From positions 1-38,791 of the forward strand of contig CALUXV010000014.1 of NCBI GenBank assembly GCA_944324835.1: a stretch of DNA of 38,791 nt. Direction: 5' to 3'. The first letter of the stretch is position 1; the number at the start of each line of letters is the position of its first letter. This document shows positions 9,767 to 38,791 of this stretch, in pieces. Made by a program: the position numbers and the translations under genes. This DNA is from Candidatus Gastranaerophilales bacterium (GTDB lineage Bacteria; Cyanobacteriota; Vampirovibrionia; Gastranaerophilales; Gastranaerophilaceae). The notes under the pieces are model-generated. The model was not told the origin of the DNA, ran no database searches, and saw only the letters and a program-made list of their open reading frames with translations.

Positions 9767-10846
9767 TTATTGTATTAATGTTCCATTTTTTATATTATAA
9801 ATTTTTACATCATCCAGAAATTTGTCATCAAAAAGCAAAGTATCAACAGATGTAATAATTGTTTGAGTATTTTTTTCTATTGATTTGAGGAGGTAATTTT
9901 GCCGTATATCATCAAGTTCCGCAAGTACATCATCAAGCAAAAGAACCGGAGATTCACCAATTTTTTCTTTAATTAAATTAAGTTCAGCAAGTTTAAGAGC
10001 AAGTACAATGGTTCTCTGTTGGCCTTGAGATGCATATTTTGTTGCATCATTATTGTTTATAAAAAACAAAATATCATCTCTATGAGGACCGACACATGAT
10101 TGTTTACGAATAATTTCTTCTTGTTTTCTATTATTTAATTCTTCTTCTAAATATTTTGCAATTTCATCAATATTTTCTAACGGAAGACTGTATTTTATAT
10201 CAAAATTTTCGCATTCAGCAATATTGCTATGTTTCAAAACAGCATATTCTCTTAATTCTTTTAAAAATTTCTGTCTCAAGAGAATTATATTAGAACCTGT
10301 TATAACCATTTGATGATTATAAACATCCAGTAAATCGTAGTTTATTTCAGGCAATTTAAGTAAATTATTTTTTTGAGTTTTAATTTTTTCATACTTGCTT
10401 AATCTTTCATCGTATGCCGGATAAATTTGAGATATTGCTCTATCAATCCAATTTCTTCTGTCTTGCGGTGCACCGCGAAGCAGTAATAAATCTTCTGTTG
10501 AAAATAGTACGGTTTTAAACGCAGTTTTAAAATTTTTTTGAGTTGTTTTTAAATTATTAAGTTTAAGTGTTTTCTTTGTATTTTCATAAATTACAGACAT
10601 ATCAATGTTAGTATCTGCTTTATTTATAGTTGCAAGAATTTCAAAGAATGAATTTTCAAATTTGACTAATTCTTTTATATTTGAAGTTCTTGGAGATTTT
10701 AACTGCGATAGGAAATAAATACTTTCCAAAATATTCGTTTTGCCTTGCGCATTTTTTCCAATAATTAGTATTTTATTAGAAGTCAAGTCAAGTGAAATAC
10801 TTTGACAGTTTCTATAGTTTTTTAGTTCAAGATTAAGTATTTTCAT
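9767..10846 (-). CDS. recF: DNA replication and repair protein RecF
   Basis: RecF loads RecA at gapped DNA as part of RecFOR. The 359-aa product (from ATG 10846) starts MKILNLELKNYRNCQSISLDL and has the Walker A motif GKNAQGKTN at about residues 29-37. The SMC/ABC-type signature is ASQGQQRTIVLALKLAEL, and Walker B is VLLLDDVLAELDD. The open frame runs further upstream to 10960, but those 38 residues are unlike RecF, so I start at 10846. No Shine-Dalgarno precedes this ATG; instead TATAAT (10859-10854 on the minus strand) lies 7 nt before it, suggesting a leaderless transcript. dnaA and dnaN are not next to it. Confidence 0.94.
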   Translation of the reverse strand: MKILNLELKNYRNCQSISLDLTSNKILIIGKNAQGKTNILESIYFLSQLKSPRTSNIKELVKFENSFFEILATINKADTNIDMSVIYENTKKTLKLNNLKTTQKNFKTAFKTVLFSTEDLLLLRGAPQDRRNWIDRAISQIYPAYDERLSKYEKIKTQKNNLLKLPEINYDLLDVYNHQMVITGSNIILLRQKFLKELREYAVLKHSNIAECENFDIKYSLPLENIDEIAKYLEEELNNRKQEEIIRKQSCVGPHRDDILFFINNNDATKYASQGQQRTIVLALKLAELNLIKEKIGESPVLLLDDVLAELDDIRQNYLLKSIEKNTQTIITSVDTLLFDDKFLDDVKIYNIKNGTLIQ

Positions 10847-10950
10847 ACAAACAATTATACTTAGAATAATTATTAAAATAAACAACTTGATTTTAGAGTT
10901 ATTAGATGTTAGACTAAACACACAGAGGGCATTATAAGAGCCTTTTGTAA

Positions 10951-10971
10951 AAGTCGTCACGGGCCTGTGGC
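10951..10971 (+). repeat. Duplicated tRNA 5' end with its 5' flank (outer copy)
   Basis: This 21-bp stretch is identical to 11062-11082. It comprises 10 bases of 5' flank and the first 11 bases (GGGCCTGTGGC) of the CAT tRNA. It is the outer, truncated tRNA 5' end; right after it comes the terminal inverted repeat ACTCTGCCGA at 10972-10981. Confidence 0.9.
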
Positions 10972-11061
10972 ACTCTGCCGACGAGAAGGATTAAGTATCC
11001 TTCGAGGAGAGGGAAGGTAGCGGTACGCTACCGCAAGCCAAAGGTTCATGATATAATAAAT
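10972..11061 (+). repeat. tRNA-edge element A (left, with terminal inverted repeat)
   Basis: The element begins with ACTCTGCCGA, the exact inverse of 19490-19499. Next is a hairpin GAAGGAT-TAAGT-ATCCTTC (10985-11003), then GAGAGG, then a second hairpin GGTAGCG/CGCTACC (11016-11032). Positions 11024-11044 closely match the reverse complement of the tRNA's D-arm and 5' acceptor region. The homologous right-hand element B at 19411-19499 shares the TIR, the pentaloop and the GAGAGG block but has a different, still paired stem. The element separates an 11-nt tRNA fragment from the intact tRNA. Confidence 0.75.
11052..11057 (+). promoter_or_regulatory. Probable -10 box of the intact CAT tRNA
   Basis: A TATAAT hexamer lies 14 nt before the first base of the tRNA and inside the end of element A. 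No convincing -35 box was found. The outer truncated copy has its own TATAAG at about 10933, so the duplication would have needed a new promoter for the intact gene. Confidence 0.45.
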
Positions 11062-11071
11062 AAGTCGTCAC

Positions 11072-11143
11072 GGGCCTGTGGCGCAGCGGTAGCGCAGAGG
11101 ACTCATAATCCTTTGGTCGTGGGTTCGAATCCCTCCGGGCCCA
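11072..11143 (+). tRNA. tRNA with CAT anticodon (Ile2 or elongator Met)
   Basis: The cloverleaf is readable: acceptor GGGCCTG/CGGGCCC, D-stem GCGC/GCGC, anticodon stem GAGGA/TCCTT with loop CTCATAA (anticodon CAT), T-loop TTCGAAT, discriminator A. CCA is not encoded. One T-stem pair (the second, T-T) is mismatched. C4-G69 and C5-G68 are the pairs TilS favours in E. coli tRNA-Ile2, so a lysidine-modified tRNA-Ile is possible; elongator Met cannot be excluded. The 3' part is the attachment site of the island. The left copy is complete, so integration preserves the gene. Confidence 0.9.
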
Positions 11144-11148
11144 TTTTT
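11098..11148 (+). repeat. attL of the integrative island (51-bp direct repeat)
   Basis: This covers the anticodon-stem-to-3'-end half of the CAT tRNA plus five T residues, and is identical to 19335-19385. It is a classic tRNA 3'-end attachment site used by a tyrosine integrase. Confidence 0.93.
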
Positions 11149-11156
11149 TAAAAGAT

Positions 11157-11193
11157 AATAATAGCAAGCGTTTTAAGACTTGCTATTATTTTT
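11157..11193 (+). terminator. Rho-independent terminator inside the left island end
   Basis: AATAATAGCAAG and CTTGCTATTATT form a perfect 12-bp stem with a 10-nt loop, followed by a T-run. It would end transcription from the tRNA before the helicase gene. It replaces the native tRNA terminator that now lies beyond attR (19386-19410). Confidence 0.8.
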
Positions 11194-11215
11194 GTCAAAA
11201 TGTCAAAATTAAAAT

Positions 11216-11236
11216 TTGTCGGAATTTTGTCGGAAT
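11216..11236 (+). repeat. Putative integrase arm-type site, left
   Basis: A 21-bp sequence built from two tandem copies of TTGTCGGAATT is identical, and in the same orientation, to 19191-19211 near the other end of the island. Two related TGTCAAAA words lie just upstream (about 11193-11208). Symmetric placement just inside both att sites suggests binding sites for the integrase or excisionase. Confidence 0.6.
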
Positions 11237-11281
11237 TGAAAATAAAAAATGATTTAAAGATGGCTTTTGTGAGGTTTGCTT

Positions 11282-14002
11282 ATGTTAAATATTGATAGTG
11301 GAATATTAACAATCGACAAAGCAATCTGCAAAAATATTTCGTTATTCGACAAAACCGGGCGAGGTCTCTTATCGCAAAATATTTTAGATAAACTTAGGAA
11401 TTTTGTTGAACATATATTTTTAAAAATATATGCGAATGGCAAAGATATTGATAATTCTTACGAAAACATAACTAAAGCAATATCCTACGTTCAAACACGA
11501 GGAAATTTAAGATTTTTATATAAATTTCATAAATTACTACAAAAATCATCTTCGCATTACACTTTAGATGAGGAAAATTCCGAAAGATTAATGTTGAAAT
11601 ATTATGAGTTTTTATTAAGAATCAAAATTTTTCTTAAAAATTCGTATAACATGGATGTTCTTGAAAATATCAACGATTTTCCTTTAAATACAGATGTTAG
11701 CCTATATAAATACTATGAAAAAATAGCGGAAAAAATTGATTATTTTGAAACATTTCACAATGAACCAAGGTTTAAATGGCGTTATTATATACAGAAAAAC
11801 AAGCCATTTTTTGTAAATAATAAAATTTATTATCAAGTTACATTTTGTTTAGCCAATGGCAAGATGAGCAAATTTGATAGAATTATTGCTTTTACAAATT
11901 TGGAAATATCTGATGATTACGCTGTAAAACTTTCTATTAGAAAAACAAATATTGAAATTTTAGGTAAAAAAATGCCCGTGTTTATTATTGATAATTGGGA
12001 AGTTTCAATAAGACCTTGCGAAATAAATAATTTTGCGAATATATTTAACGAATTTAAAACGATTTCGTCGACTTCTAGAGAGTATATAAACTTAATGTCG
12101 TTATTGACTGTACACAAATTAAACTTGACCGAAATTATGGAAATGTCCGATAGTTATTATAATTATTATCAAAATAAAATTATGGAGAATGCAAAAACAT
12201 TTCAAATTACGGAGTTATTAAGTAAATGTCGTGCATTAATTTTAAACAATCAACCCGGGGCAAATATAATTAGATATTTGCTTTTACATTTAAACAATGT
12301 AATTATAAAAAATCAATATAAAAACGAGGCTTGCAAACGTCTATCTTCTTTAAATTTGCAATATGGATGTATCCCATTTGATGATATGCCCTTTAGCACA
12401 TCCTTAATTGCTCATAATCCTAAATTTTCGGATTTGCTTATGTGTATAGATACAGAACATAGAGAGCATGAATTTCTTGCACGAAAAATAAAAAATAATA
12501 CAGAAATAAACGGAGAGTTATATACTAAAATTGATGATTTACAAGAATTTGAAAATATTGATGAGTTAGTTAAACTTTATAATAACAAGCTGTATTATAA
12601 ACATTATCATCGCTCAATTCAAAATTATCATAATCAATACTATATATCCGGGTATGAAAAAGATACTGTTGACATATTGAAAGTTCTTAAAAATCTGTCA
12701 TCTTCGGGGATAAATAAATACACGGATTCTTTTGATGATTGGTTAAGTAAAAGCGAGTATCTTATAGATTGCGAGGAAAAAAAGGCAGTTCTTAGAAAAA
12801 TGTTTGAAGATTCAAGAGTTGCACTTATCTATGGTTCGGCGGGAACCGGCAAGTCGACAATAATAAACCACTTATCAAATTTCTTCAACAATAAATCAAA
12901 ACTATATTTAGCAAATACAAATCCAGCGATTGATAATTTAAAACGTAAAGTCAAAGCCTCAAATGTTACGTTTAAAACTATTGCAAGTTTCTTGATGTCA
13001 AAAAATTTCAATACCGAATTTGATATTTTAATTATTGATGAATGTAGTACGGTGAGTAACCGCGACATGGTTGATATACTTGAAAAGGCAAAATTCAAAC
13101 TACTTGTTTTAGTTGGGGATATATATCAGATTGAATCAATTATTTTTGGTAATTGGTTTAATTTAGCAAAAAACTTTATTAAAAATTCCGCAGTAACTGA
13201 ACTAACTACACCTTATCGCAGTAATTGTGAACATCTTTTGAATTTATGGAATAAAGTTAGAAACATGGATGACGATATTATCGAGTTAATTACAAAAAAA
13301 AATTATTCTAAAACATTGGATGATTCAATTTTTGAACGCACCGAAGATGACGAAATAATATTGTGTTTGAATTATGACGGACTTTATGGAATTAACAATA
13401 TAAATAACTTTTTACAAGAGAATAACCCTAATCCACCTTATACATGGGGAGTGCAAACTTATAAAGTTGACGACCCCATAATTTTTAACGAATCAGAAAG
13501 ATTCTCATCCGTTTTATACAATAATTTAAAGGGGAAAATTGTTGATATAAATTTATTTGAAGATAGGATTCAATTTGATATAGAAATTGACAAAGTAATA
13601 AACGAATCAGATATATGGGAATATAGTAATTTAGAGTTGGTTGATAATCCTAATTGCACAAATTCTGTTGTTAGGTTTTCGGTATACTCAAATAAAGTAA
13701 ATGACGATAACGATGACGATGAATCTCTCGAATATATTGCACCATTCCAAATTGCTTATGCAATTTCTATTCATAAGGCTCAAGGCCTAGAGTATAACTC
13801 TGTTAAAATTGTCATTACAAATGAAATTGACGAGATGATTTCTCATAATATATTCTATACGGCAATAACTCGAGCAAAACAGAATTTAAAAATCTACTGG
13901 TCTCCGGAATCTGAGAAAAAAGTCTTGGAAAATCTTGAGGTTAAAACTTATAAAAAAGATATTTCGTTATTGAGAACAAAATTCTCGGAATTAAAAAATT
14001 AA
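11282..14002 (+). CDS. SF1 RecD-like helicase with large novel N-terminal region
   Basis: The 906-aa protein has a superfamily 1 helicase/ATPase core in its second half. Walker A is GSAGTGKST at 518-526, Walker B is IIDECS with D586-E587, motif III is GDIYQ, there is a TPYRS arginine motif, and the C-terminal SIHKAQGLEY (H831) and FYTAITRAK motifs are those of RecD2/UvrD_C_2-type helicases. Residues 1-500 are AT-rich-encoded, charged and unrecognised. The ATG at 11282 (GAGG at 7 nt) is preferred to the TTG six bases earlier. It is the first island gene beside attL, a common cargo position. Replication helicase or anti-phage defence are both possible; the sequence does not decide. Confidence 0.85.
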   Translation: MLNIDSGILTIDKAICKNISLFDKTGRGLLSQNILDKLRNFVEHIFLKIYANGKDIDNSYENITKAISYVQTRGNLRFLYKFHKLLQKSSSHYTLDEENSERLMLKYYEFLLRIKIFLKNSYNMDVLENINDFPLNTDVSLYKYYEKIAEKIDYFETFHNEPRFKWRYYIQKNKPFFVNNKIYYQVTFCLANGKMSKFDRIIAFTNLEISDDYAVKLSIRKTNIEILGKKMPVFIIDNWEVSIRPCEINNFANIFNEFKTISSTSREYINLMSLLTVHKLNLTEIMEMSDSYYNYYQNKIMENAKTFQITELLSKCRALILNNQPGANIIRYLLLHLNNVIIKNQYKNEACKRLSSLNLQYGCIPFDDMPFSTSLIAHNPKFSDLLMCIDTEHREHEFLARKIKNNTEINGELYTKIDDLQEFENIDELVKLYNNKLYYKHYHRSIQNYHNQYYISGYEKDTVDILKVLKNLSSSGINKYTDSFDDWLSKSEYLIDCEEKKAVLRKMFEDSRVALIYGSAGTGKSTIINHLSNFFNNKSKLYLANTNPAIDNLKRKVKASNVTFKTIASFLMSKNFNTEFDILIIDECSTVSNRDMVDILEKAKFKLLVLVGDIYQIESIIFGNWFNLAKNFIKNSAVTELTTPYRSNCEHLLNLWNKVRNMDDDIIELITKKNYSKTLDDSIFERTEDDEIILCLNYDGLYGINNINNFLQENNPNPPYTWGVQTYKVDDPIIFNESERFSSVLYNNLKGKIVDINLFEDRIQFDIEIDKVINESDIWEYSNLELVDNPNCTNSVVRFSVYSNKVNDDNDDDESLEYIAPFQIAYAISIHKAQGLEYNSVKIVITNEIDEMISHNIFYTAITRAKQNLKIYWSPESEKKVLENLEVKTYKKDISLLRTKFSELKN

Positions 14003-14105
14003 TATTTGCATTTGAATTTCTAACACTAGAAAATCAAATACAATTTACACGTTCAAATTTTATCCGAGAACGTTTCTCCGAACATTTTAAAAGAGAAATA
14101 AAATA

Positions 14106-14222
14106 AACGGTGAAACACACGCACAGCAAGGGTCTTAGCCTTACGGGTCCTGTGTCTGGTTTGAGGGAAAACGGGGGTTGTTGTCCTGCACGCCGGCACT
14201 TAAAAAATGCCCCAATTTTTTT
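14106..14222 (+). ncRNA. Candidate structured RNA, GC-rich island in AT-rich DNA
   Basis: This block is strikingly GC-rich against its surroundings. CACAG/CTGTG encloses an AAGG/CCTT hairpin (about 14120-14153). A G-rich segment follows, and the block ends with GGCA...TGCC followed by a run of T residues (about 14196-14222), like an intrinsic terminator. The only open frame through it starts at GTG without a ribosome site and reads into low-complexity sequence, so coding is unlikely. It matches no RNA family I know; the fold is drawn by eye. Confidence 0.4.
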
Positions 14223-14261
14223 AATTTGGAAATTTGCAAAATTTTCGCGAATACCTCAACT

Positions 14262-14356
14262 CCTTATTATTATTGCTTTTCTCTCGCTTTTAACTTGTTA
14301 AGTAATTTGCAAAAAATAAATAAAATTTAATTCCTCAAAAAGCAATAATAACAAGG
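14262..14356. repeat. Long inverted repeat (19-bp arms, one mismatch)
   Basis: CCTTATTATTATTGCTTTT (14262-14280) pairs with AAAAGCAATAATAACAAGG (14338-14356) at 18 of 19 positions, around a 57-nt loop that contains the palindrome ACTTGTTAAGT. It could be a regulatory or replication structure. It lacks the layout of an ordinary terminator. Confidence 0.5.
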
Positions 14357-14711
14357 GTTTTAAGAGAAAAATAAAAAAATAATTTGTTAACTGGATTTTG
14401 TTAAGTATTAGAATATAAAAAAATAATTTTCTTATCCCTTATAATCAGTAATTACGCTAATTTCCAAGATTTTTTTATTATAAAAACTTGTTAAGTTGAT
14501 TTTTTAAAATTATTTTGTTTAAAATTTACAAAAAAATAATGTGCAATTTTACACCTTTAAAAAAAGAAAATAATAATCCGTGAAAACTTTGAATAATCTA
14601 CAAAAAAAGAAAATAAGTGCAAAAAAATTACAATTTTGAATTTTTCTTTTATTTTATGAGTTTTGCCTTTGTTACTTATCAATAAAACATTTTAACCATT
14701 TGAAAAATTGG

Positions 14712-14717
14712 TATAAT
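14712..14717 (+). promoter_or_regulatory. Probable -10 box of the phage-like operon
   Basis: TATAAT lies about 80 nt before the ATG of the excisionase-like gene, the first gene of the three-gene tail module. No clear -35 hexamer at 16-18 bp was found, so it may need an activator or may be a chance match in AT-rich DNA. Confidence 0.35.
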
Positions 14718-14797
14718 TTGGCACTACTTTTTTATAAAAGAAAAGCTAATAATAAAATCGTTAAAACAATTTTAAAAGATATAGCAAAGGAGAAAAA

Positions 14798-15022
14798 ATG
14801 CAAAATCAATACCAAAACAAAAACGAAAAACCTAAAATTATTCCATTATCAAAATGGAATGAGTATTACGACTTCCCGTCCGTTGGTTCATTGAGGCAAC
14901 TTGTTTTCCATAATACCAATAAATTTAAGGAAAAAGTAATTAGAAAATTCGGCAATGGCCGTCAATATATAGACGTTGACGCGTTTTTTAAATGGGCCAA
15001 TTCTACTGAAAATGTATCGTAA
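14798..15022 (+). CDS. Small excisionase-like DNA-binding protein
   Basis: The 74-aa protein resembles small winged-helix excisionase/AlpA-type proteins of phages and integrative elements. SVGSLRQLVFHNTNKF could be the recognition helix, and a basic KVIRKFGNGRQYIDVDAFFKWANS tail has the usual 'R..G.R..IDVDAFF.W' ending. It would help excision or control transcription of the island. The ATG at 14798 follows GGAG at 7 nt. It starts a co-directional unit with the next two genes (20-bp and 18-bp gaps). The family call is by pattern, not by search. Confidence 0.6.
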   Translation: MQNQYQNKNEKPKIIPLSKWNEYYDFPSVGSLRQLVFHNTNKFKEKVIRKFGNGRQYIDVDAFFKWANSTENVS

Positions 15023-15042
15023 AGTTAAAAGGAGAAAAGAAA

Positions 15043-15477
15043 ATGGAAATTAGAAAAAAACTTGAGGAAAATCAAGCATTACAAGCAATTGAAAACATCA
15101 AAACAAAAATATTCGGAGAAAACATTTTAAACGTTCTTGATTCAAAAAACGTGGAAAAATCTTTCCAAAAGATTAAACCGGGCCGTTATTTACTTGCTGC
15201 AGTTATGGCCGGCGTTGTGTTTTATGACGACGAAAAAGGTTGTCTTGTTCAAGAAATGTTTAAACCGCTAAAATCGGGCGAACAAGAGGCAAACGCCTTG
15301 TATTTCAAACACGATATAACAATGGGAATGATGAGAGACGAAAACACATCTAACGAAATGGCGTTGACAATTAACATGATTTCTCGAATTACCGGACGTT
15401 CAAAACAAATAATCGAAAAGATTTGCGGCCAAGACCTAAAAATCACTCAAGATTTAGCAAATTTTTTCTACTCATAA
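15043..15477 (+). CDS. Putative phage tail assembly chaperone
   Basis: The 144-aa protein is not recognised directly. It lies immediately upstream of the tape-measure gene, where tailed phages usually encode tail assembly chaperones, and its size fits. The sequence has an N-terminal helical, charged half, a short hydrophobic stretch (GRYLLAAVMAGVVFYDDEKG, about residues 46-65) and a C-terminal helical part (ITGRSKQIIEKICGQDLKITQDLANFF). No programmed frameshift site is obvious. It has a strong ribosome site (AAGGAG). A structural tail protein is the main alternative. Confidence 0.5.
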   Translation: MEIRKKLEENQALQAIENIKTKIFGENILNVLDSKNVEKSFQKIKPGRYLLAAVMAGVVFYDDEKGCLVQEMFKPLKSGEQEANALYFKHDITMGMMRDENTSNEMALTINMISRITGRSKQIIEKICGQDLKITQDLANFFYS

Positions 15478-15495
15478 GGAAAATAAGGAGAAATA

Positions 15496-17295
15496 ATGTC
15501 TAAGGGATTTTCAGTTTTTACGGTTTTTAAGGCAACGGACGAAATAACGCCGACATTTAAGACAATGACAAAGGGGGCGATCGTATTTTCTCGAAATATG
15601 CAAGCAACTCGGAGCCAATTAAATAATTTCGGCAACAATATAAAAAACACATTTGGGAAGTTTAACACGTTATTTAATGCGGCTATTAGTTTTGTTGCAT
15701 TTGACGCCGTCAACGAAAAAATTAATTCATTTGTAAACTCTGCGTCAGATTTACAAGAAACCGTCGGAAAAACGGGACAGGTTTTCAAAAATAATTCGGC
15801 CGAAGTTGAAAATTGGGCAAAAACTTCCATTAAGTCAATGGGTTTAGCTGAACAAACAGCACTCGACACAGCTTCATTATTTGGAGACATGGGGACAGGA
15901 ATGGGAATGTCAACCAAAAGAGCGGCCGAAATGTCTATGAGTTTAACTCAACTCTCTGCAGATTTAGCCTCATTTAAAAATATTAGTCAAGATATGGCCG
16001 CAAATGCTTTAAAAAGCATATTTACGGGGGAGACGGAATCTCTCAAAAATTTAGGCGTTGTAATGATGGAATCAACATTACAAGAGTATGCACAAGCAAA
16101 CGGCATTCGTAAAAAATTAAAAGATATGACGCAAGCCGAAAAAATAGAATTGCGTTACCAATACGTCATGAAAGCAACAACAAACGCTCAAGGCGATTTT
16201 ATACGAACATTCGGCAACTATGCAAACCAAAAACGCGTCGGAGAGGAACTTAAAAAGCAAGCCGAAATAAATATCGGCCGAATTTTACTTCCTGTTTGGA
16301 ATCGTTTCATGGTTATGTATAATACTTTTTTTACTAATAACCTTGACGGTATAACAAAAACTTTCGATAAGACATTCCGTTATGTTTCCGGATTGGTAAA
16401 TTCTTTTAAACCGGTTTTCAATGAGTTGCAAAAAACTATTTTGATTTTTAGAGAATCCGTCGGTCCGGCTTTAGTAGAGCTTGGCCCTCCGGTTGAAAGT
16501 TTATTCAAAAATATTTTAGTTCCGGGGTTGGTTTTGGCAGTTGCCGGTTTTAATAAACTGTTAACCGTTTTTATGGCAACTTACAATTTTATTTCCGATA
16601 ATTGGATTCCGATTGTCTCAATACTTGCCGGAGTTGGCGGAATGTTAGCGTTAAAAAAAGCGTTTGACCTCGTAACTGCTGCCATTACTTGGTATAATGC
16701 AACGCTCATGGTTTCAACAACTCAAGGAATCGCGGCTTTGTCCGGAATAGCAAAAATTAAATTTATGTTGTCTAGTTATACGGCCGTTGTTTGGCAATCA
16801 GTCAAGGCAATAGCCGCACAAACTAAAGCGTTATTTATGAACCCGTGGACGTGGGTTGCGGTTGGGATTGCTGCCGTCGTTGCCGGTGCGATTCTTGTTT
16901 GGAAAAATTGGGACAAAATAACAGAGGCTTTGAAAACATTTTGGGCAAAATGCGTCGAGGTTTTCTCTCAATTTAAGGCATTTTTTCAAAATAATTTCAT
17001 TGATTGTATTTTAGCGGCTATGGGTCCGATAGGTTGGATTATTACAGGGATAAGGCGAATCGGAGACGGAGTCCGAGGGATAAAAAAAGACTCGAACGGA
17101 GGTTCAATCGAAACAAACTCAAACGCAAAAACCGCCGCAAATCAAAAAGTCCCGACAAATTATAAGCAAAACCAAAACAATCAATTCAACGGCTCGATTG
17201 ATGTCGGGGTTAAGATTGATAATTCAACAGCGTTTCCTGCCTCGTCTTATTTGAATTTAACAGGAAATCACGGATTAACCTTGAGTCCGGCATAA
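15496..17295 (+). CDS. Phage tail tape-measure protein
   Basis: Tape-measure proteins set tail length and help DNA pass the host membrane. The 599-aa protein has the family layout. The N-terminal domain (SVFTVFKATDEITPTF, then coiled coil) is followed by a segment typical of phage tape measures, ASDLQETVGKTGQVFKNNSAEVENWAK and SQDMAANALKSIFTGETESLKNLGVVM. Hydrophobic segments follow near 335-365, 370-390 and 450-472, and the tail end is low-complexity Asn/Gln-rich. It is short for the family, predicting a short tail if functional. Codon choice is less AT-biased than in the helicase gene, suggesting different origins for the two ends of the island. No baseplate or head genes follow. Confidence 0.85.
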   Translation: MSKGFSVFTVFKATDEITPTFKTMTKGAIVFSRNMQATRSQLNNFGNNIKNTFGKFNTLFNAAISFVAFDAVNEKINSFVNSASDLQETVGKTGQVFKNNSAEVENWAKTSIKSMGLAEQTALDTASLFGDMGTGMGMSTKRAAEMSMSLTQLSADLASFKNISQDMAANALKSIFTGETESLKNLGVVMMESTLQEYAQANGIRKKLKDMTQAEKIELRYQYVMKATTNAQGDFIRTFGNYANQKRVGEELKKQAEINIGRILLPVWNRFMVMYNTFFTNNLDGITKTFDKTFRYVSGLVNSFKPVFNELQKTILIFRESVGPALVELGPPVESLFKNILVPGLVLAVAGFNKLLTVFMATYNFISDNWIPIVSILAGVGGMLALKKAFDLVTAAITWYNATLMVSTTQGIAALSGIAKIKFMLSSYTAVVWQSVKAIAAQTKALFMNPWTWVAVGIAAVVAGAILVWKNWDKITEALKTFWAKCVEVFSQFKAFFQNNFIDCILAAMGPIGWIITGIRRIGDGVRGIKKDSNGGSIETNSNAKTAANQKVPTNYKQNQNNQFNGSIDVGVKIDNSTAFPASSYLNLTGNHGLTLSPA

Positions 17296-17350
17296 ATTCA
17301 TATTGCTAAAAACGTTTTTTAATAATATAATTTAGATACGATTTTATTTT

Positions 17351-17384
17351 TAACCCGTTTTGACATAAAAGCGGGTTATTTTTT
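17351..17384 (+). terminator. Rho-independent terminator after the tape-measure gene
   Basis: TAACCCG and CGGGTTA pair around a 14-nt loop and are followed by six T residues. It ends the rightward phage-like operon 55 bp after its last stop codon. Confidence 0.85.
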
Positions 17385-17517
17385 GTTAAAAATCTCGTGA
17401 GTATTTGACGTGTTTTTAAAAGAATACTCGCAAAATAGATAAGTATATCCTTAAAGTAAAATTAACCGCCTTAAAATCGATTTTGCGTGTTTTAAAAATT
17501 TACATATATATTTATAA

Positions 17518-17545
17518 TTAGTATTTAATTATTAGTATTTAATTA
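17518..17545. repeat. Two tandem 14-bp repeats (TTAGTATTTAATTA)
   Basis: The unit TTAGTATTTAATTA occurs twice in perfect tandem (17518-17531 and 17532-17545). It lies 25 bp from a second array, at 17571-17607, of different sequence but the same 14-bp period. Confidence 0.75.
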
Positions 17546-17570
17546 TTAGGGATTTTCCGACTCGGCTCAA

Positions 17571-17607
17571 CCGTTACGGAAAACCCGTTACGGAAAACCC
17601 GTTACGG
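17571..17607. repeat. Three CCGTTACGG palindromes at 14-bp period
   Basis: CCGTTACGG (a palindrome around the central T) occurs at 17571-17579, 17585-17593 and 17599-17607, joined by AAAAC or a near variant. It lies between two convergent operons, not at a promoter, so an iteron-like or protein-binding maintenance site is as likely as an operator. Confidence 0.75.
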
Positions 17608-17634
17608 GTGTAAATAACCGCATTTGAAAAATAT

Positions 17635-17835
17635 TCAATTAAATTCCTCGAAAAGATAATCGGCCGATAATTTGCAATTAAAAAATTCAACGATTTTAAT
17701 AATGTCTCTATAAAAAAAATTCTTTTTGCCTTGTAGTTTCAGCGAAAATACTTGATAAGACATATTGATAAATTTTGCAAAATCTTTAACCGTTAAATCT
17801 CGTTTAGAAATTTCGTTCATTAAATTACAATACAT
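17635..17835 (-). CDS. Small XRE-like helix-turn-helix regulator
   Basis: The 66-aa protein has a helix-turn-helix of the XRE/Cro type. LTVKDFAKFINMSYQVFSLKLQGKKNFFYRDIIKIVEFFNC spans residues of about 14-54, with the usual A-x(3)-N-x(5)-S spacing. It would bind DNA as a phage-type repressor or Cro-like switch. The ATG at 17835 follows a strong AGGAGGG. It is the last gene of the leftward integrase unit, 29 bp after the integrase stop. Its target is unknown; the CCGTTACGG array just downstream is a candidate. Confidence 0.75.
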   Translation of the reverse strand: MYCNLMNEISKRDLTVKDFAKFINMSYQVFSLKLQGKKNFFYRDIIKIVEFFNCKLSADYLFEEFN

Positions 17836-17864
17836 CGTCCCTCCTATTGTTCCCAGAATTAAAA

Positions 17865-18965
17865 TTACTTGCTGCCTACATTTTTAAACATTTGCATATT
17901 CATATTTTCCAAAACCTCACCAGTGTGTCCTTTAGTTAAATGGGAATACCTTTGAACCATAGCCAAGGTTTTATGCCCCAAAATAGTCGCAATTTCGAGC
18001 AAACTTGCCCCGTTTTTTGCAAGGAAACTCGCCGCCGTATGCCTTAAATCGTGAAAATGAAAGTCCTCGATTTTGGCTTTTTTAACTGCTCTCTCAAATT
18101 GCCCCCGCAAATAAAGGGTTTTGCGACCGTCTTTTGTTGCAAATAGCATATTAGATTTGATATTTCGAACTTTTTGGAATTCTAAAAGTTCGTTATAAAC
18201 GTTTGATGTAATTTTTGCCCCTCGGTCCTCTCCGTTTTTTGTATCTAAAAAATGAAATTGTCTGTTCTCGAGGTCCACATTATCCCACGATAAATTTAAA
18301 ATTTCGCTATATCTCGCCCCGGTTGATAATGCAATCAACACGCATAAGTGTAATTCTTTTGATTCTTTTAAACATTCCGTTAATAATTTTGGAATTTGTC
18401 GGTCGTTCAAGTATCTTACACGCCCTCTCGGCTCTCGTTTTTTAACAACTTTTAACATCGGATTTTCGTCAAGCCACCCATATTGTTTAACGGCAACACT
18501 TAAAACCGTTGAAAGTGTTGACATATATCGATTAACGGTTGAATTTGAACGAGTTTTTTCACTAATTTTTGGAGACATATTTTTTCGCGGAATTAAGCAT
18601 TTTTCTTTTGACAATTTGTCTCTATATTCCGAAAGCATAATGTTATCAATAGTTGATAAATAATAGGCCCCGATTTGTTGTTTCCACCACGTAAGGTGCA
18701 TTTTGAATTTTTCATGGTCTGATTTTCTGTCTTTTAATTCATGTTCCAAGTATCGGTCGATTAGTTCATTAACAGTGTGTTTCTGAGCGGTATAATTTTT
18801 TAAATATTTACCCCTCTTCAATGGAGTTTCATTTTCGGAAACCCATTCCCGTGCGTCTGTTAATCTCGAAAATGTCGCGGTTAATGGCGGATATCCCTTG
18901 ATTCTTATACAAGCCGTATAGGAATATTCCCCATTTTTCTTTTTTCTTTTTTTAATTTCCGCCAT
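17865..18965 (-). CDS. Tyrosine recombinase (site-specific integrase)
   Basis: The 366-aa integrase moves the island in and out of the CAT tRNA. The N-terminal arm-binding domain (KKRKKKNGEYSYTACIRIKGYPPLTATFSRLTDAREW) is of the AP2-like phage type, followed by a SAM-like core-binding domain (about residues 60-160). The catalytic domain shows the first Arg in STGARYSEILNLSWDNV, then HFHDLRHTAASFLA, the later His in ILGHKTLAMVQRYSHL and its Tyr nucleophile. All expected catalytic residues seem present, so it is probably active. Its start overlaps the upstream XRE gene by 14 bp. It lies about 370 bp inside attR, as usual for this class. Confidence 0.95.
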   Translation of the reverse strand: MAEIKKRKKKNGEYSYTACIRIKGYPPLTATFSRLTDAREWVSENETPLKRGKYLKNYTAQKHTVNELIDRYLEHELKDRKSDHEKFKMHLTWWKQQIGAYYLSTIDNIMLSEYRDKLSKEKCLIPRKNMSPKISEKTRSNSTVNRYMSTLSTVLSVAVKQYGWLDENPMLKVVKKREPRGRVRYLNDRQIPKLLTECLKESKELHLCVLIALSTGARYSEILNLSWDNVDLENRQFHFLDTKNGEDRGAKITSNVYNELLEFQKVRNIKSNMLFATKDGRKTLYLRGQFERAVKKAKIEDFHFHDLRHTAASFLAKNGASLLEIATILGHKTLAMVQRYSHLTKGHTGEVLENMNMQMFKNVGSK

Positions 18966-19170
18966 ATTCTAACCCCTTTATTACCTTGTTAATATCTATT
19001 TGCAACAAATAACATAGGCTTACAAGAGTTGGAGCCTTTAAACGTCTTTTGCCGCTTAAAATTTTTATTAAGACATTTCTATTAATATCCGTATAATTAG
19101 CCACATCTTTAATTGATAGGCCATATTGTTTAATCTTTTTTGAAATTTCTTTTACGATTTTATTTTTCAT
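18952..19170 (-). CDS. XRE-family helix-turn-helix regulator upstream of integrase
   Basis: The 72-aa protein is a compact XRE-type repressor. QYGLSIKDVANYTDINRNVLIKILSGKRRLKAPTLVSLCYLLQID covers the five-helix domain at about residues 13-57, followed by a short tail. It overlaps the integrase start by 14 bp, implying coupled translation and joint control of integration. Similar length and fold to the 66-aa protein at 17635, but the sequences are not near-duplicates. The promoter of the leftward unit must lie between here and attR, close to the 21-bp arm-like repeat. Confidence 0.8.
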   Translation of the reverse strand: MKNKIVKEISKKIKQYGLSIKDVANYTDINRNVLIKILSGKRRLKAPTLVSLCYLLQIDINKVIKGLEYGGN

Positions 19171-19190
19171 AATTTACCAATTTTTTAAAA

Positions 19191-19211
19191 TTGTCGGAAT
19201 TTTGTCGGAAT
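19191..19211 (+). repeat. Putative integrase arm-type site, right
   Basis: The 21-bp repeat is identical to 11216-11236 in the same orientation and contains two tandem TTGTCGGAATT-like words. It lies just upstream of the leftward XRE-integrase unit and 124 bp inside attR. Confidence 0.6.
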
Positions 19212-19334
19212 AATTCTCAAAAAAATTATAAAATCCTGTAAAAGATTATAAAACTAAAATTTTAAAAAATCAATAAATATAAGCAATATCGGGAAAATAT
19301 TTTTTTAGATTTTTTTAAAATTTTTTAAAATCAA

Positions 19335-19385
19335 AGGACTCATAATCCTTTGGTCGTGGGTTCGAATCCCTCCGGGCCCATTTTT
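19335..19385 (+). repeat. attR of the integrative island (51-bp direct repeat)
   Basis: This partial copy of the CAT tRNA (anticodon stem to 3' end plus five T) is identical to 11098-11148. It lacks the 5' half, so it is not a functional tRNA. It marks the right border of an 8.2-kb insertion. Confidence 0.93.
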
Positions 19386-19410: not shown

Positions 19411-19499
19411 AGTAAGGATTCGAACCACGAATTTCCTTCGTAAATTCTAGGGTTCTTACCTCTCACAAAACAATACTTAATTGTTTTGTTCGGCAGAGT
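19411..19499 (-). repeat. tRNA-edge element B (right, inverted partner of element A)
   Basis: Read on the minus strand from 19499, this starts with ACTCTGCCGA, then a perfect 10-bp stem ACAAAACAAT/ATTGTTTTGT around the pentaloop TAAGT, then GAGAGG, matching element A in order. A second hairpin GAATTT/AAATTC follows. Positions 19416-19430 are an inverted copy (one base missing) of the tRNA's T-arm. The stem differs from that of element A at several positions while staying paired, which points to selection on structure. Confidence 0.75.
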
Positions 19500-19516
19500 C
19501 TCCGGGCCCATTTTTT
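19500..19516 (+). repeat. Duplicated tRNA 3' end (outer copy)
   Basis: CTCCGGGCCCA plus six T residues repeats the last 11 bases of the CAT tRNA and its T-run. It directly follows the terminal inverted repeat of element B, mirroring the 5' fragment at 10951-10971. Confidence 0.9.
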
Positions 19517-38580: not shown

Positions 38581-38608
38581 TGAAAATTGAATATGGGAGC
38601 GTAGCTCA
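38581..38608 (+). repeat. Duplicated tRNA-Asp 5' end with its flank (outer copy)
   Basis: This 28-bp stretch is identical to 38701-38728, exactly 120 bp further on. It contains 14 bases of 5' flank and the first 14 bases of tRNA-Asp (GGGAGCGTAGCTCA). After it the sequence leaves the tRNA. Confidence 0.95.
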
Positions 38609-38700
38609 CACGGCAGCCGAGGAATGGTAAGATTGGTAAAGCCGAAGGATGCCGAGGTTCAACATAGGAACCAAACTGAGCTACAATCTAACAAACAGTT
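38609..38700 (+). repeat. tRNA-Asp edge insert with inverted D-arm copy
   Basis: This 92-bp unique segment lies between the two tRNA-Asp 5' ends. Positions 38669-38684 are the exact reverse complement of tRNA-Asp bases 38721-38736 (16 nt of the D-arm), so part of it can pair with either tRNA 5' copy. It also has three GCCGA words, a GGTTC/GAACC hairpin (38656-38672) and CGGCA/TGCCG arms. Layout resembles element A at 10972-11061: truncated tRNA start, GCCGA-containing insert, inverted D-arm, repeated flank, intact tRNA. Confidence 0.7.
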
Positions 38701-38714
38701 TGAAAATTGAATAT

Positions 38715-38791
38715 GGGAGCGTAGCTCAGTTTGGTTAGAGCGCATGCCTGTCACGCATGAGGTCGCGAGTTCGAGCCTCGTCGTTCCCGCC
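38715..38791 (+). tRNA. tRNA-Asp (GTC), running off the window edge
   Basis: Acceptor GGGAGCG/CGTTCCC, D-arm GCTC/GAGC, anticodon stem CATGC/GCATG with loop CTGTCAC (anticodon GTC), and T-arm GCGAG/CTCGT are all present. Discriminator G is followed by CC at the last two bases, so an encoded CCA is likely cut by the window edge. The 3' flank cannot be inspected. Confidence 0.95.

What the first reader, a model, noticed from the sequence alone, without database searches (positions are those of the whole stretch)
38581..38736. Second tRNA (Asp) with duplicated 5' end and an inverted D-arm copy in the insert
A 28-bp exact repeat (period 120) duplicates the flank and first 14 nt of tRNA-Asp. The 92-bp insert ends with a 16-nt perfect reverse complement of the tRNA D-arm. 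The order (truncated tRNA start, GCCGA-containing insert, inverted D-arm, repeated flank, intact tRNA) is the same as at the CAT tRNA, 27 kb away. Two of three tRNAs in the window show it; tRNA-Gly does not. Recurrence argues for a family of tRNA-edge elements rather than an accident. The inverted D-arm could also pair with the nascent tRNA or the truncated fragment.
Basis: partly seen in the sequence, partly recalled or inferred. Interest (0 to 1): 0.65.

Follow-up and report, generated by a model that had tools for sequence, protein, structure and literature searches.

The report
Tiny insertions that duplicate tRNA-gene ends
In a family of gut bacteria related to cyanobacteria, about half of all tRNA genes carry small folded DNA insertions that copy one end of the gene, so the gene still works, and that often also carry a short sequence complementary to that same gene; the piece beside tRNA-Asp in this window is one of them, and I found no description of such a system.

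Summary
In detail: an exact 28-bp repeat (38581-38608, 38701-38728), a 92-nt insert, and a 16-nt perfect reverse complement of the D arm (38669-38684). It is not a local accident. In five congeneric genomes 82 of 174 tRNA genes (47%) have a duplicated end, against about 1% when tRNA ends are sought beside other tRNAs. Two mirror forms exist: 5' (insertion in the D loop, sense strand) and 3' (T loop, opposite strand). Presence varies between congeners: tRNA-Asp is empty in G002, G003, G007, filled in G000, G004, G005. Inserts are modular: a scaffold hairpin of one of several families, often a segment antisense to the host's own tRNA across the insertion point, then a tail. The commonest core (CTCT-GCCGA-stem-loop-GAGAGG; 74 distinct versions, stems nearly fully paired) occurs in 41/60 genomes of the family and 0/96 of other families; named genomes are mostly Candidatus Gastranaerophilales gut MAGs. 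Best reading: non-coding, non-autonomous mobile mini-elements that regenerate the tRNA they enter. Reverse transcriptase, Y1 and IS110 transposases are each missing from element-rich genomes, so the moving enzyme is unknown. Whether the antisense segment guides insertion is open.

The parts
38581..38594 (+). outer copy of the tRNA leader (TGAAAATTGAATAT), left half of the direct repeat
   Evidence: the empty site in G002/G003/G007 has a single such leader directly before the tRNA
38595..38608 (+). truncated copy of tRNA-Asp nt 1-14 (segment L)
38609..38700 (+). 92-nt insert: scaffold hairpins, antisense segment and tail; absent at the same gene in G002, G003, G007
38669..38684 (-). 16-nt exact reverse complement of tRNA-Asp nt 7-22 (38721-38736), spanning the insertion point after nt 14
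38701..38714 (+). inner leader copy with the recurrent tail motif TGAMAAYTRAATA immediately before the tRNA
38715..38791 (+). intact tRNA-Asp(gtc); contig ends here
10951..10971 (+). outer copy of leader + tRNA nt 1-11 at tRNA CAT
10972..11012 (+). type-1 core hairpin (ACTCTGCCGA..GATTAAGTATC..GAGAGG) of the 5' element at tRNA CAT
11016..11034 (+). copied D-arm segment GGTAGCG followed by its reverse complement CGCTACCGC
11062..11082 (+). second repeat copy: leader + nt 1-11 of the intact tRNA CAT
11072..11143 (+). tRNA with CAT anticodon (intact)
19459..19499 (-). type-1 core of the 3' element belonging to the same tRNA CAT, now separated from it by an ~8.2-kb integrative element
19500..19510 (+). 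duplicated tRNA CAT 3' end (CTCCGGGCCCA) beyond the 3' element

Best explanation
The tRNA-Asp feature is one copy of a family of non-coding, non-autonomous mobile mini-elements (about 65-250 nt) specialised for tRNA genes. SHOWN: an element lies in the D loop (sense) or T loop (opposite strand); the gene end up to the insertion point is present twice, so one full tRNA remains; occupancy differs between congeners; inserts are modular, with a scaffold hairpin of one of several families shared by different tRNAs, often a segment antisense to the host's own tRNA across the insertion point, and a new leader (5' form) or a terminator (3' form); tandem arrays are common. INFERRED: a recombinase or nuclease-ligase acting in trans inserts the element in folded or single-stranded form; the antisense segment, with the flanking copies, forms a three-way junction and probably helps recognise or align the target; arrays grow and shrink by recombination between the direct repeats; only insertions that leave a working tRNA survive, which explains the restored ends.
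For: Genome-wide occurrence: 82/174 tRNA genes against 33/3250 in the control. Filled/empty sites: Asp, Trp in the rpmG-trnW-secE context, Arg-tct with a nearly unchanged outer leader. Same core at many different tRNAs, at the tmRNA 3' end and in palindromic repeats. Core structure: 74 distinct cores, 55 distinct 5' arms almost all paired, loop TAAGT/TAAAT/TGAGT. Core replaces about 5 nt: 37x5, 23x6, 11x4 of 95. Antisense to own tRNA >=10 nt in 27% of 97 inserts, against 3.7% for other tRNAs and 0.1% for shuffled inserts. The same scaffold style (CTAGGCGA..GTTCAAAAT) carries an Asp antisense in one gene and an Asn antisense in another. Restricted to one family: 41/60 against 0/96 genomes, reversed-pattern control 0. 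Many identical dispersed cores in G012, G124 and G167.
Against: No encoding enzyme was found; RVT_1, Y1_Tnp and Transposase_20 are each absent from G003, and RVT_1 and Y1_Tnp also from G027. The direct repeat is not of fixed length: about 11-30 nt in simple cases, longer in arrays. Many type-1 units also contain a copied D-arm segment after the core, not expected of a simple target-site duplication. Many dispersed identical cores in G012 and G167 sit inside larger repeats, so those copies may have spread with the larger repeat. Movement has not been observed.
Confidence: 0.7

Rival explanations
1. Host-driven replication errors: template switching at hairpin-forming tRNA arms makes a partial tandem duplication of the gene end plus an inverted copy, and hairpins later accumulate in the dispensable copy.
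For: The architecture is a tandem copy with inverted segments and junction hairpins; in several units the segment after the core folds back on itself. L243, not at a detected tRNA, has the same tandem layout.
Against: The core is a conserved family across tRNAs, tmRNA and palindromic repeats and lineage-restricted. The antisense runs straight across the insertion point without the core, so it was not copied from the interrupted copy; mismatches cluster at the junction (8 of 14 at -1/0).
Confidence: 0.15
2. Cis-acting regulatory RNA: the units are leader RNAs that tune processing or folding of the pre-tRNA by pairing with the truncated copy or the D arm.
For: The Asp precursor folds with the antisense paired to the tRNA D arm or to the truncated copy; 5' units probably lie in the transcript.
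Against: About half of the elements lie at the 3' end on the opposite strand, often beyond a terminator, and cannot pair with the tRNA RNA; occupancy is patchy among congeners.
Confidence: 0.08
3. Scars or miniature satellites of tyrosine-integrase elements: attachment-site-like remnants using D-arm or T-arm dyads as att cores, mobilised by integrases in trans.
For: The repeated block often runs from the insertion point to the gene end, as in tRNA-integrating elements; tmRNA 3' ends are also used; an ordinary tRNA-integrating element with an integrase is present in the window.
Against: Conserved scaffolds and antisense segments are not features I know of att sites; D-loop insertion restoring the 5' end is unusual (own knowledge); no full-size element with the same ends was seen; an integrase search was not run because such genes are near-universal and would not discriminate.
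Confidence: 0.2
4. Assembly artefact at repeats.
For: The window contig ends exactly at the tRNA, and several contigs of this MAG end at tRNAs.
Against: The same architecture appears inside long contigs of many independent assemblies from different studies and with unique flanks on both sides.
Confidence: 0.02

Closest known systems
Rickettsia palindromic elements and other small non-autonomous bacterial repeats (PMC2229807)
   Same: about 100-150 nt, strongly folded, non-autonomous, can sit in RNA genes (tmRNA, RNase P RNA)
   Different: the review describes them inside genes without a duplicated gene end; no segment antisense to the host gene and no tRNA-wide occupancy are described in the section read
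Integrative elements at tRNA/tmRNA genes (partial duplication discussed in PMC9897764; sublocation work of Williams 2002 cited there, not readable here)
   Same: partial plus complete tRNA copy; the gene is restored
   Different: those examples are many kb and bring genes; these are 65-250 nt, non-coding, use both gene ends in mirror form, form tandem arrays and carry a target antisense
REP/BIME sequences with RAYT Y1 transposases
   Same: small palindromes in many copies, nested in other repeats
   Different: Y1_Tnp is absent from element-rich genomes G003 and G027; not tRNA-specific
IS110 bridge-RNA systems
   Same: works-like resemblance only: target complementarity on both sides of the insertion point
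   Different: no IS110 transposase in G000 or its seven congeners; contiguous antisense on one strand; tRNA end duplicated

Membership tests
Tyrosine-integrase integrative element in a tRNA gene | direct repeat from the insertion point to the gene end, tRNA restored | tested here: met
Tyrosine-integrase integrative element in a tRNA gene | encodes an integrase between the repeats | tested here: not met
   inserts in the surveyed set are about 65-400 nt, too short for an integrase
Tyrosine-integrase integrative element in a tRNA gene | mobilised by an integrase in trans | not testable with these tools
   needs an experiment; integrase families are near-universal
MITE / small palindromic element | short, non-coding, folded, multi-copy, polymorphic | tested here: met
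MITE / small palindromic element | ends shared with an autonomous transposon of the same genome | tested here: inconclusive
   none seen; RVT_1, Y1 and IS110 are each missing from element-rich genomes, other transposase families not searched
MITE / small palindromic element | fixed-length target-site duplication | tested here: not met
   the repeat varies from about 11 to over 40 nt
REP/RAYT | co-occurring Y1 RAYT transposase | tested here: not met
   absent in G002, G003, G007 and G027, which carry 11-21 motif copies
IS110 bridge RNA | IS110 transposase | tested here: not met
   absent in all eight genomes of the genus
Group II intron / retroelement | reverse transcriptase available in the genome | tested here: not met
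   RVT_1 absent in G000, G003, G005 and G027
Known structured RNA (Rfam) | match above the gathering score | tested here: not met
   only tRNA and tmRNA reach the gathering score

The most novel reading that the evidence does not exclude
A nucleic-acid-guided miniature mobile element: a constant scaffold plus a 13-21-nt segment complementary to the host tRNA gene directs insertion into the D or T loop, and the segment is renewed for each new tRNA, giving guide-programmed homing without a linked protein gene.
Probability: 0.25. Interest if true: 0.92.

Novelty: new variant of a known kind. Interest (0 to 1): 0.72.

Why it matters
tRNA genes are the classic landing sites of large mobile elements. 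Here nearly half of the tRNA genes surveyed carry tiny, modular insertions at either end, which regenerate the gene and often carry a matching antisense segment. This gives a natural catalogue of filled and empty sites to dissect how such minimal elements recognise their targets, and it may lead to an unknown small-element mobilisation enzyme in gut Gastranaerophilales. It may also explain why MAG contigs of this group often break at tRNAs.

Tried and rejected
Rfam search of the window and 16 element loci: no known RNA family besides tRNA/tmRNA. Kink-turn/box C/D (TIGR-like) reading of the GCCGA bulge: considered from the sequence only, not pursued because the elements sit at their own targets and no guide array is seen. 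Reverse transcriptase, Y1 transposase and IS110 as a general partner: no correlation. Viral origin of the core: 0 matches in IMG/VR. Promoter reading of the tail motif TTGACAATTAAATA: rejected as a general rule because it abuts the tRNA. Snap-back synthesis on the interrupted copy: rejected because the antisense lacks the core. Literature: no description found in the held open-access papers.

Full report
WHAT IS THERE. The window is the whole 38,791-base contig C14 of a 1.98-Mb genome. At its right edge, tRNA-Asp(gtc) at 38715-38791 is preceded by an exact 28-nt repeat of its own leader and first 14 nt (38581-38608 and 38701-38728), with a 92-nt insert between. Within the insert, 38669-38684 is the exact reverse complement of tRNA nt 7-22. 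The insertion point, after nt 14, lies in the middle of that antisense. Folding the unit as single-stranded DNA pairs the truncated copy with the left half of the antisense, around two hairpins.

GENOME-WIDE. A scan of the tRNA genes of this genome found many with a duplicated 5' end 97-160 nt upstream, or a duplicated 3' end downstream. The 3' elements are the same kind of element read on the other strand: many of their inserts carry the reverse complement of the same core. In five congeneric genomes (G000, G002-G005), 82 of 174 tRNA genes have a duplicated end of at least 9 nt; the same test on the flanks of a different tRNA gives 33 of 3250.

FILLED AND EMPTY SITES. tRNA-Asp is empty in G002, G003 and G007 and filled in G000, G004 and G005 at the same position, with different inserts (92 and about 65 nt) that carry the same 16-nt antisense. 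tRNA-Trp, in its rpmG-trnW-secE context, is empty in G001, G002 and G007 and filled with one or more units in G000, G003, G004 and G006; remnants of an older unit seem to remain in some empty sites. At Arg-tct the outer leader of filled G005 is nearly identical to the empty G003 site, and the repeat is the tRNA 5' end plus three bases. In the outermost unit the repeated leader is short (0-4 nt) in 22 of 95 cases and long (13 nt or more) in 52, the latter including arrays.

ANATOMY. The commonest core is CTCT-GCCGA-stem-loop-GAGAGG, with a stem of 8-12 bp and loop TAAGT, TAAAT or TGAGT. Among 171 copies there are 74 distinct versions with 55 distinct 5' arms, nearly all paired: the folded form, not the stem sequence, is conserved. 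The core sits after tRNA nt 8, 11-12, 18-19 or 26 (5' form), or 11-14 nt from the 3' end (3' form), and replaces about 5 nt of the tRNA. Other scaffolds share the position: AAGGACTCCG, CCNAG (Trp, Val, Asn and others; a related CTAGGCGA form at Asp and Asn in G005), and, only at 3' ends, GTCTTG. The tail before the intact tRNA often contains TGACAATTRAATA. The core also occurs at tmRNA 3' ends and in palindromic repeats; the tmRNA assignment rests on my reading of the sequence.

ANTISENSE SEGMENT. Inserts match the antisense of their own tRNA end at 10 nt or more in 27% of 97 cases, against 3.7% for another tRNA and 0.1% for shuffled inserts; 37 of 52 5' inserts reach 8 nt. With mismatches allowed, 61 of 97 score 8 or more against 35 of 211 in the control, and 28 reach across the insertion point; in the distinct spanning cases 8 of 14 mismatches are at the two junction positions. 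Similar scaffolds carry different antisense segments at different tRNAs. In many units the right half also has a short partner inside the insert, so a purely structural role (three-way junction) remains possible. Because 3' elements lie on the opposite strand, pairing with the tRNA RNA cannot be the general function; target recognition at DNA level fits both forms.

DISTRIBUTION. The 11-base loop motif is enriched across the family. The full core pattern is present in 41 of 60 genomes of the family and in none of 96 genomes of other families of the class, with no match to the reversed pattern. In named genomes the matches are mostly Candidatus Gastranaerophilales or Melainabacteria gut MAGs, plus a few with other or uninformative titles; there are none in viral contigs.

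MECHANISM. Best supported: non-autonomous mobile mini-elements moved in trans, which survive at tRNA genes because the inserted arrangement leaves one complete gene. The enzyme is unknown; RVT_1, Y1_Tnp and Transposase_20 fail as general partners. Tandem arrays fit recombination between direct repeats. The role of the antisense is not settled.

COMPARISON. Small palindromic elements such as RPEs are similar in size and folding and can enter RNA genes (PMC2229807); integrative elements produce a partial and a complete tRNA (PMC9897764). I found no report that combines the two, or that describes gene-matched antisense. The held library is open-access only, so novelty is provisional.

LIMITS. Most data are MAGs; contig ends truncate arrays. 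tRNA ends were tested only to about 450-500 nt, so duplications separated by larger elements are missed. No expression or movement data exist here. Statistics from related genomes are not independent events.

Noticed in passing
11098-19385: An ordinary ~8.2-kb integrative element sits at the CAT tRNA: direct repeat from the anticodon arm to beyond the 3' end (about 11098-11148 / 19335-19385), tyrosine integrase at 17865-18965, and a 908-aa helicase (11276-14002) matching PADLOC candidate PDC-S53. It separates the tRNA from its own 3' mini-element.
   Followed up: partly
9767-10960: SMC/RecF-like ATPase beside the CAT tRNA; best PADLOC match mad3.
   Followed up: partly
L437-L446: In G012 identical cores lie inside a larger dispersed repeat, several copies of which also end in GTTGACAATATGAAAT, like the tail motif of the tRNA elements.
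   Followed up: partly
L193, L220, L239, L249, L447-L453: The core lies at one and the same site of a REP-like palindrome (TCATCCTGAGC|core|GCGAAGGATC and variants) in many copies.
   Followed up: partly
L206, L252, L089: The 3' form appears to occur at tmRNA gene 3' ends (read from sequence).
   Followed up: partly
G000 contigs C9, C14, C65, C85: Contigs of this MAG end at or within a few bases of tRNA 3' ends, as expected if repeat arrays there break the assembly.
   Followed up: no
L088, L182, L187, L195: Type-1 cores appear nested inside the long GTCTTG-type elements.
   Followed up: no
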